Positions 25,604 through 26,520 of a stretch of 46,056 nucleotides of DNA are shown here, piece by piece. The translations under genes and the position numbers were made by a program. The DNA is from Chloroflexota bacterium (GTDB lineage: Bacteria > Chloroflexota > Dehalococcoidia > Lucifugimonadales > UBA3495). Where the stretch lies: assembly GCA_022562475.1 (NCBI GenBank), contig JADFPD010000004.1:1-46056 (forward strand). The letters are read 5' to 3'. Positions within the stretch are counted from its first letter, which is position 1. Each line of letters opens with the position of its first letter. Below the pieces are notes generated by a model that did no database searches, was not told the origin of the DNA, and saw only the letters and a list, made by a program, of their open reading frames with translations.

Positions 25604-26188
25604 TTAGTGGAGCTTTTCCGTAGCGGCCGCCGCCATCGATCGGACTGCCGGCAGGTGGCACAATCCGTTGGCTTCGATGCCGAATACCGGGTTAAATTTG
25701 CTCCGGAAGTTTTCATAGGCGATGATTGCCGAAAGCTCCACCAATTCCTCGTCAGTGAACTCCTTCTGCAATTTTCTGAAGAACCGCTCGCTCACACGCT
25801 TCCCCGTGTAGGTCATACGCTCGGCAAGCTCCAAAGCCAGCTTCTCACGTCCGCTGAAAAGACTGCCGTCTTTATAGGACTCGAGGTGCGCCAACTTTTC
25901 CGCTGATCCGCTCTCTTGCGCCGCCCTGGACGCATTGATATCGATTCAAAATGGGCAGCCGTTGATCCAAGCCGTCTTTGTGTAGACCAAATATTTCAGC
26001 GATGGACCGATCAGGCCCGAGGCGTCTATGCCGGCCGCCAAGGCGATCGATCCGGCCATGATCGTCGGTCTCAGGGCGAATATCGGGGTTGTGTTCAACA
26101 CTTCGCCAAAGATGCTTCTCTGGCGCTGGAACAATTCCCTGACCTCCGGAGTCGCTTCTTCCTCGGTTATCCCATGAATTCTGGCCAT
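25604..26188 (-). CDS. AhpD-like/carboxymuconolactone decarboxylase family, candidate selenoprotein (CPFU, TGA at 25946-25948)
   Basis: ORFs 25946-26188 and 25604-25894 share a frame; readthrough gives KYLVYTKTAWINGCPF-U-IDINASRAAQESGSAEKLAHLESYKDG...; TGA replaces the second Cys of the CxxC redox motif. Confidence 0.8.
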
Positions 26189-26217
26189 GGAGATTTTCTC
26201 CTTTTCGCGCTGACGCG

Positions 26218-26520
26218 TCAGGCTGAAGCCTCTACGCTTAATTCATAATGATCGAAGGTTGGAGGCCCGGCGAAAACGCTGTTAAATTTGGCCACTTGTT
26301 CTTGTAAATATCCACTGCCGGACTCACTGGCCAACATATCCGTTTCCGATTCCCAGATGGTGATGGAGAGGATCTTGCCGCCACCGGCATCGGTCATCAG
26401 GTAGCTTCCCTGCCATCCTTTTTGGGCCTTGGCGGCAGGGACCAACGAGTCATTGTGGAGATCGATGACTTCCTGCATTTTTCCCGGCCGGATTTGAACG
26501 GTTGCCGCTCTTACGTACAT
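26218..26520 (-). CDS. Antibiotic biosynthesis monooxygenase (ABM) domain protein
   Basis: MYVRAATVQIRPGKMQEVIDLHND..AKAQKGWQGSYLMTDAGGGKILSITIWES. Confidence 0.85.
   Translation of the reverse strand: MYVRAATVQIRPGKMQEVIDLHNDSLVPAAKAQKGWQGSYLMTDAGGGKILSITIWESETDMLASESGSGYLQEQVAKFNSVFAGPPTFDHYELSVEASA

What the first reader, a model, noticed from the sequence alone, without database searches (positions are those of the whole stretch)
25604..26188. Candidate selenoprotein: AhpD-like/CMD protein with CPF-TGA (CxxU) redox motif
Sequence: two ORFs in the same minus frame are separated only by TGA at 25946-25948, and the readthrough product is a continuous CMD-domain protein (194 residues, U81). 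The TGA falls exactly where AhpD-family proteins carry the second Cys of the CxxC catalytic motif (AWINGCPF-TGA-IDINASRAAQE), and 113 codons downstream remain open and family-like. Established: AhpD-like CxxU selenoproteins and Cys/Sec exchange at CxxC sites are known. A hairpin UGCGUC-CAGGGC-GGCGCA starts 12 nt after the UGA with a G-containing loop beginning 18 nt after it, near bacterial SECIS geometry, although the first two loop bases are not G. Inference: UGA is decoded as Sec, so standard annotation breaks this gene into two false hypotheticals.
Basis: partly seen in the sequence, partly recalled or inferred. Interest (0 to 1): 0.88.

Follow-up and report, generated by a model that had tools for sequence, protein, structure and literature searches.

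The report
CxxU selenoprotein gene in Chloroflexota
A bacterial gene that looks broken by a stop codon almost certainly encodes an intact redox enzyme whose "stop" is read as selenocysteine; it is a clear new example of a kind of selenoprotein known since 2005.

Summary
On the minus strand, 25604-26188 is a 194-codon CMD/AhpD-like gene with one in-frame TGA at codon 81, the second position of a CxxC-type motif (CPF-U). The same genome has selA, selB, selD (itself with an in-frame TGA, CAGU) and a tRNA-Sec with a UCA anticodon. TGA is kept at this codon in 36 Sec rows of the family tree, almost all Chloroflexota, including several separate MAGs of the same genus or family; a clade branching among them has TGC. 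Codons on both sides of the TGA are under strong purifying selection. The downstream hairpin (+15 to +32 from the U of UGA) covaries, and its nine codons are frozen in five genomes while synonymous sites elsewhere are near saturation. TGA is an ordinary stop in neighbouring genes, so the code is not reassigned. I conclude selenoprotein, about 97% likely. The closest described relatives are the AhpD-like CxxU selenoproteins (COG2128/YciW; NCBIfam NF053654), so the kind is known. This subfamily scores far below that model's cut-off and lacks the Glu and His of the AhpD proton relay. Substrate unknown; a thiol/selenol peroxidase or reductase is most likely.

The parts
25604..26188 (-). CMD/AhpD-like selenoprotein gene, 194 codons, ATG at 26188, TAA stop at 25604-25606
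   Evidence: readthrough translation; PF02627; relatives; purifying selection on both sides of the TGA
25946..25948 (-). In-frame TGA, codon 81, read as selenocysteine; second position of the CxxU motif
   Evidence: TGA at this codon in 36 family rows; TGC in a clade branching among them
25955..25957 (-). Codon for Cys78, partner Cys of the CPFU (CxxU) motif
   Evidence: invariant
25917..25934 (-). Bacterial SECIS-like hairpin UGCGUC-CAGGGC-GGCGCA, +15 to +32 from the U of UGA; loop at 25923-25928
   Evidence: fold; nine codons 84-92 identical in five genomes, Fisher p=2e-6; lower energy than synonymous recodings; compensatory changes
26198..26203 (-). AAGGAG, likely ribosome-binding site 9 nt before the ATG
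   Evidence: read directly from sequence

Best explanation
The gene encodes a CxxU selenoprotein of the CMD/AhpD-like (YciW-related) superfamily. When the ribosome reaches UGA codon 81, the hairpin that starts after an 11-nt spacer recruits SelB carrying Sec-tRNA(UCA), and Sec is inserted in place of termination. Sec81 is the likely catalytic nucleophile and Cys78 its resolving partner, at the start of the second helix of the catalytic helical hairpin, giving a thiol/selenol redox enzyme (peroxidase or reductase). Shown computationally: the intact frame, family membership, conserved TGA, Sec machinery in the same assembly, and a constrained, covarying hairpin. Inferred: actual Sec insertion, the roles of Sec81 and Cys78, and the peroxidase or reductase activity. 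The physiological substrate is not known.
For: Sec machinery in the same assembly: SelA 448 bits, SelB 357 bits full length, SelD 376 bits with TGA in the CAGU motif, tRNA-Sec 64.5 bits with UCA anticodon. TGA at the homologous codon in all seven relatives from genome contigs (one of them, L009, is otherwise disrupted) and in 36 rows of the 40-row family clade of the tree, the other four (L040, L042, L043, L049) having TGC. Selection: pN/pS 0.10-0.17 after and 0.09-0.25 before the TGA, dN/dS 0.03-0.10 after it. SECIS: nine conserved-residue codons 84-92 all invariant against 26 of 128 elsewhere, p=2e-6; mean z -2.4 against synonymous recoding over 25 sequences; 2 and 4 pairs with changes on both sides in two subsets, paired cells 98% and 94% against at most 62.5% in slid controls. 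Fold model closest to Bmp8 and PA0269 CMD/AhpD-like structures. selB found in 33 of 41 related genomes checked, including all 17 that are at least 90% complete and at most 5% contaminated.
Against: No experiment. The sel genes lie on other contigs of a MAG with 4.99% estimated contamination, although related MAGs repeat the pattern. The window hairpin alone is not unusually stable, and its six-base loop begins CA, not G. Five carriers lack a selB hit, all incomplete MAGs of 69-89%. Some copies look damaged: L070/G569 and L073/G451 have extra stops.
Confidence: 0.97

Rival explanations
1. The gene is a pseudogene, or the TGA is a sequencing or assembly error.
For: A stop splits a recognisable domain; a few relatives (L070, L073) carry several stops.
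Against: The same TGA is in many separately assembled genomes from 56 to 86% protein identity. Codons after the TGA are as constrained as those before it, and no other stop occurs in the frame.
Confidence: 0.01
2. UGA is reassigned genome-wide (for example to Trp) rather than read as Sec at this site.
For: The frame is open if UGA is any residue.
Against: TGA ends neighbouring genes in the window (GDSL hydrolase, ABM protein, phosphodiesterase). Homologues have Cys, not Trp, at the site. Full Sec machinery is present.
Confidence: 0.005
3. Two separate short genes (80 and 96 codons) are translated independently, with TGA as a true stop.
For: ORF calling gives 25946-26188 and 25604-25894 as separate ORFs.
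Against: The CMD domain and the catalytic CxxC pair span the TGA. The second ORF's TTG start lies 17 codons after the TGA, leaving conserved codons untranslated. The stop is always TGA in relatives, although a free stop codon would drift to TAA or TAG.
Confidence: 0.015
4. Function rival within the selenoprotein reading: it is a reductive dehalogenating enzyme like the CxxC debrominase Bmp8, with Sec taking the halogen as in deiodinases, rather than a peroxidase or disulfide reductase.
For: Bmp8 is the best fold match and a sequence match (46.5 bits with the profile). Sec-dependent dehalogenation by deiodinases is established knowledge.
Against: Only 18-19% identity over a general fold. Bmp8 has a His at +3 that this family lacks. 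PA0269-type proteins match the sequence better. No linked halogen genes were seen.
Confidence: 0.07

Closest known systems
NCBIfam NF053654 GroundWater_YciW, YciW-related (seleno)protein
   Same: Full-length alignment (residues 1-176 to model 1-176, 151.9 bits, E 1.5e-44)
   Different: Curated cut-off is 310 bits. Window and close relatives score 117-164, and no Chloroflexota genome of 251 passes, best 298: a sibling subfamily, not a member by that rule
AhpD-like CxxU selenoproteins of Sargasso Sea / GOS (COG2128 YciW, pfam02627; PMC1088965, PMC2398784; review PMC13188914)
   Same: Same superfamily and same CxxU motif; Cys homologues known; SECIS with G in the apical loop
   Different: Paper searches for SAR202 or Dehalococcoidia selenoproteins gave nothing on this family
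AhpD-like proteins PA0269 (2IJC/2O4D) and Atu0492 (2GMY)
   Same: Closest solved relatives by sequence; same helical hairpin with the CxxC site
   Different: They have Cys at the second position, His at +4 and, in PA0269, Glu at -15 (PMC3141380). Here Sec81, Asn85 and Tyr66
Debrominase Bmp8 (6OHI/6OHJ)
   Same: Top fold match over most of the chain; CxxC site
   Different: 18-19% identity, Cys not Sec, different flanking residues

Membership tests
Bacterial selenoproteins (UGA-decoded Sec) | In-frame TGA at a position where homologues have Cys | tested here: met
Bacterial selenoproteins (UGA-decoded Sec) | SelA, SelB, SelD and tRNA-Sec in the same genome | tested here: met
Bacterial selenoproteins (UGA-decoded Sec) | SECIS hairpin just after the UGA with a small G-containing apical loop | tested here: met
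   feature as given in PMC1088965. bSECISearch itself was not available
Bacterial selenoproteins (UGA-decoded Sec) | Selenium in the purified protein (75Se, mass spectrometry) | not testable with these tools
   needs experiment
Pfam CMD (PF02627) | Score above the gathering cut-off (23 bits) | tested here: met
   28.7 bits
NCBIfam NF053654 YciW-related (seleno)protein | Score above curated cut-off (310 bits) | tested here: not met
   151.9 bits; all relatives tested are below it
TIGR01926 peroxidase-related enzyme (domain given for AhpD-like CxxU selenoproteins in PMC13188914) | Score above curated cut-off (81.8 bits) | tested here: not met
   39.4 bits
AhpD-like peroxidases with proton relay (PMC3141380) | CxxC (or CxxU) pair at the start of the second catalytic helix | tested here: met
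AhpD-like peroxidases with proton relay (PMC3141380) | His at +4 after the second Cys (invariant in the structures of that paper) and Glu at -15 (usual) | tested here: not met
   the 36 Sec rows have Asn (35) or Asp (1) at +4 and no Glu at -15

The most novel reading that the evidence does not exclude
A Chloroflexota-wide branch of the AhpD-like superfamily, fixed for Sec, that has dropped the Glu/His proton relay because the selenol, ionised at neutral pH, no longer needs it; it may have moved to a different reaction, for example reductive dehalogenation as in Bmp8 and deiodinases.
Probability: 0.2. Interest if true: 0.55.

Novelty: new member of a known kind. Interest (0 to 1): 0.36.

Why it matters
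Ordinary ORF calling splits the gene into two short ORFs, and the nearest curated (seleno)protein model misses it by its cut-off, so this and dozens of relatives across Chloroflexota are probably mis-annotated. A model for the subfamily would fix that. The lack of the usual proton-relay residues next to a fixed Sec also gives a testable case of what selenium buys an enzyme.

Tried and rejected
Viral contigs and phage records gave no relatives; it is not a phage gene. Plasmid records gave only homologues below 60% identity. A conserved operon was looked for: the ABM-domain gene just upstream (26218-26520) is kept next to the gene only in L063 of the same genus (83% identity), so the context gives no function. 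Fold stability of the single window hairpin was not significant, so that argument was dropped in favour of covariation and synonymous freezing. Other in-frame TGAs near a Cys in the window were listed and read by eye; none other looked like a readthrough protein, but they were not searched against libraries. Paper searches for SAR202/Dehalococcoidia selenoproteins and for Bmp8 gave nothing directly relevant. The first translation of loci from the genome search read several on the wrong strand; it was redone.

Full report
OBSERVATION. The minus-strand stretch 25604-26188 reads as one 194-codon gene with a single in-frame TGA at codon 81. A purine-rich AAGGAG lies 9 nt before its ATG (read from sequence). 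ORF calling splits it into 25946-26188 (80 aa) and 25604-25894 (96 aa). The readthrough product matches Pfam CMD across the TGA. Its best NCBIfam match is NF053654, 'YciW-related (seleno)protein', end to end at 151.9 bits but below that model's cut-off of 310. Open frames around a TGA are not rare here by themselves: 9 of 1422 TGAs have as much open frame on both sides. The case therefore rests on homology and conservation.

MACHINERY. The window is contig C114 of a 2.96-Mb, 166-contig MAG (78% complete, 5% contaminated). The same assembly holds SelA (448 bits), SelB (357 bits, full length), SelD (376 bits) with TGA in the canonical CAGU site, and a tRNA-Sec with UCA anticodon. The weaker RF01852 hit L012 is a tRNA-Ser. 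selB is present in 33 of 41 related genomes checked and in all 17 that are at least 90% complete and at most 5% contaminated.

CONSERVATION OF THE TGA. Seven relatives from genome contigs have TGA at this codon: six labelled Dehalococcoidia or SAR202, one labelled Deltaproteobacteria and placed in Myxococcota (L007). One of them, L009, is disrupted by other stops upstream. Searches of the class, order and phylum added many more. In the tree of 55 rows the window's family is a clade of 40 rows (support 91/89): 11 Sec rows that include the window, 25 further Sec rows, and 4 rows with TGC (L040, L042, L043, L049) that branch next to the 25. Further CMD groups outside have either Sec or Cys at the same column. 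Sec/Cys exchange at one catalytic column is the standard signature of a selenoprotein.

SELECTION. Among the window and three relatives at 84-86% protein identity, pN/pS is 0.09-0.25 before the TGA and 0.10-0.17 after it, and dN/dS after it is 0.03-0.10 where it can be estimated. Variable sites pile up at third codon positions on both sides. The part after the TGA is therefore translated in frame.

SECIS. The window hairpin pairs positions 15-20 with 27-32 counted from the U of UGA, loop CAGGGC. On its own it is no more stable than shuffles. In five genomes the nine codons 84-92 are all identical, whereas only 26 of 128 other conserved-residue codons are (p=2e-6). Over 25 distinct sequences the region folds better than synonymous recodings (mean z -2.4), though the sequences are related and not independent. 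In the window's subclade two pairs show changes on both sides; in the sister subclades, whose hairpin loop is one base shorter, four pairs do. Slid controls are clearly worse. Examples: UGCGUC/GGCGCA, UGCAUC/GAUGCA, GCUGC/GCAGC, GCUAGC/GCUAGC.

ALTERNATIVES. Sequencing error and pseudogene fail on the conserved TGA and low dN/dS. A reassigned code fails because TGA is the stop of the neighbouring GDSL, ABM and phosphodiesterase genes. Two separate genes fail because the catalytic pair and the domain span the TGA.

FUNCTION. The AlphaFold2 model (mean pLDDT 72.8, only seven rows; the last 28 residues unreliable) matches CMD/AhpD-like structures, best Bmp8 debrominase, PA0269 and Atu0492. Sequence profiles agree. 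In M. tuberculosis AhpD and PA0269 the two Cys work with a Glu at -15 and a His at +4 from the second Cys (Glu118/Cys130/Cys133/His137; Glu36/Cys48/Cys51/His55), the His being invariant in the structures compared there (PMC3141380). In this family the second Cys is Sec, the His is Asn in 35 of 36 Sec rows (Asp in one), and no row has the Glu. I infer that Sec81 is the nucleophile and Cys78 resolves it. A selenol is ionised at neutral pH without help (general knowledge), so the relay may have become dispensable; this is inference. A peroxidase or thiol reductase is the likeliest activity; reductive dehalogenation is a minor alternative.

PLACE AMONG KNOWN THINGS. CxxU AhpD-like and CMD selenoproteins were described from the Sargasso Sea in 2005 (PMC1088965), counted in GOS in 2008 (299 AhpD-like 1, 70 AhpD-like 2; PMC2398784), and appear in reviews (PMC9312934, PMC13188914). 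This gene is a new, well-supported member of that kind, in a subfamily that NCBI's nearest model does not reach: no genome of 251 in the phylum passes its cut-off, although 14 of the 15 with a match carry one TGA. It is patchy within its own genus: 4 of 12 genomes have it, including this one and a damaged copy in G569, and several that lack it still have selB.

Noticed in passing
L058, from 388 (G000:C1:2887 onward, + strand): A second CMD homologue in the same genome with one in-frame TGA at the same site (NDCAT-U-RLGRA), probably another selenoprotein; NF053654 55.9 bits.
   Followed up: partly
L059, from 399 (G000:C62:15898 onward, + strand): A third CMD homologue with TGA (NKCQY-U-TLAHAQ), above the TIGR01926 peroxidase-related cut-off (131.6 bits), so the genome seems to have at least three CxxU CMD selenoproteins besides SelD.
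   Followed up: partly
L025:1501-2421 (G000:C138): selD of this genome is itself a selenoprotein gene (LSHCAG-TGA-AAKLS) with a strong downstream hairpin.
   Followed up: yes
window 26218-26520 (-): ABM-domain (antibiotic biosynthesis monooxygenase-like) gene 29 nt upstream on the same strand; adjacent also in L063 of the same genus at 83% identity, not in the other relatives checked.
   Followed up: partly
L007:1066-1647: A close relative (62% identity) with TGA in a bin labelled Deltaproteobacteria/Myxococcota, nested among Chloroflexota sequences: horizontal transfer or a misbinned contig.
   Followed up: no
L070 (G569:C51) and L073 (G451:C14): Copies with several extra in-frame stops; decaying genes, frameshifts or poor sequence.
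   Followed up: no
L031-L041, L068-L071 just after the TGA: The SECIS hairpin has a loop one base shorter than in the window clade (15-20 paired with 26-31), so its register has slid within one gene family; in L068, L069 and L071 repeated Ala-Ser codons form a perfect GCTAGC palindrome.
   Followed up: yes
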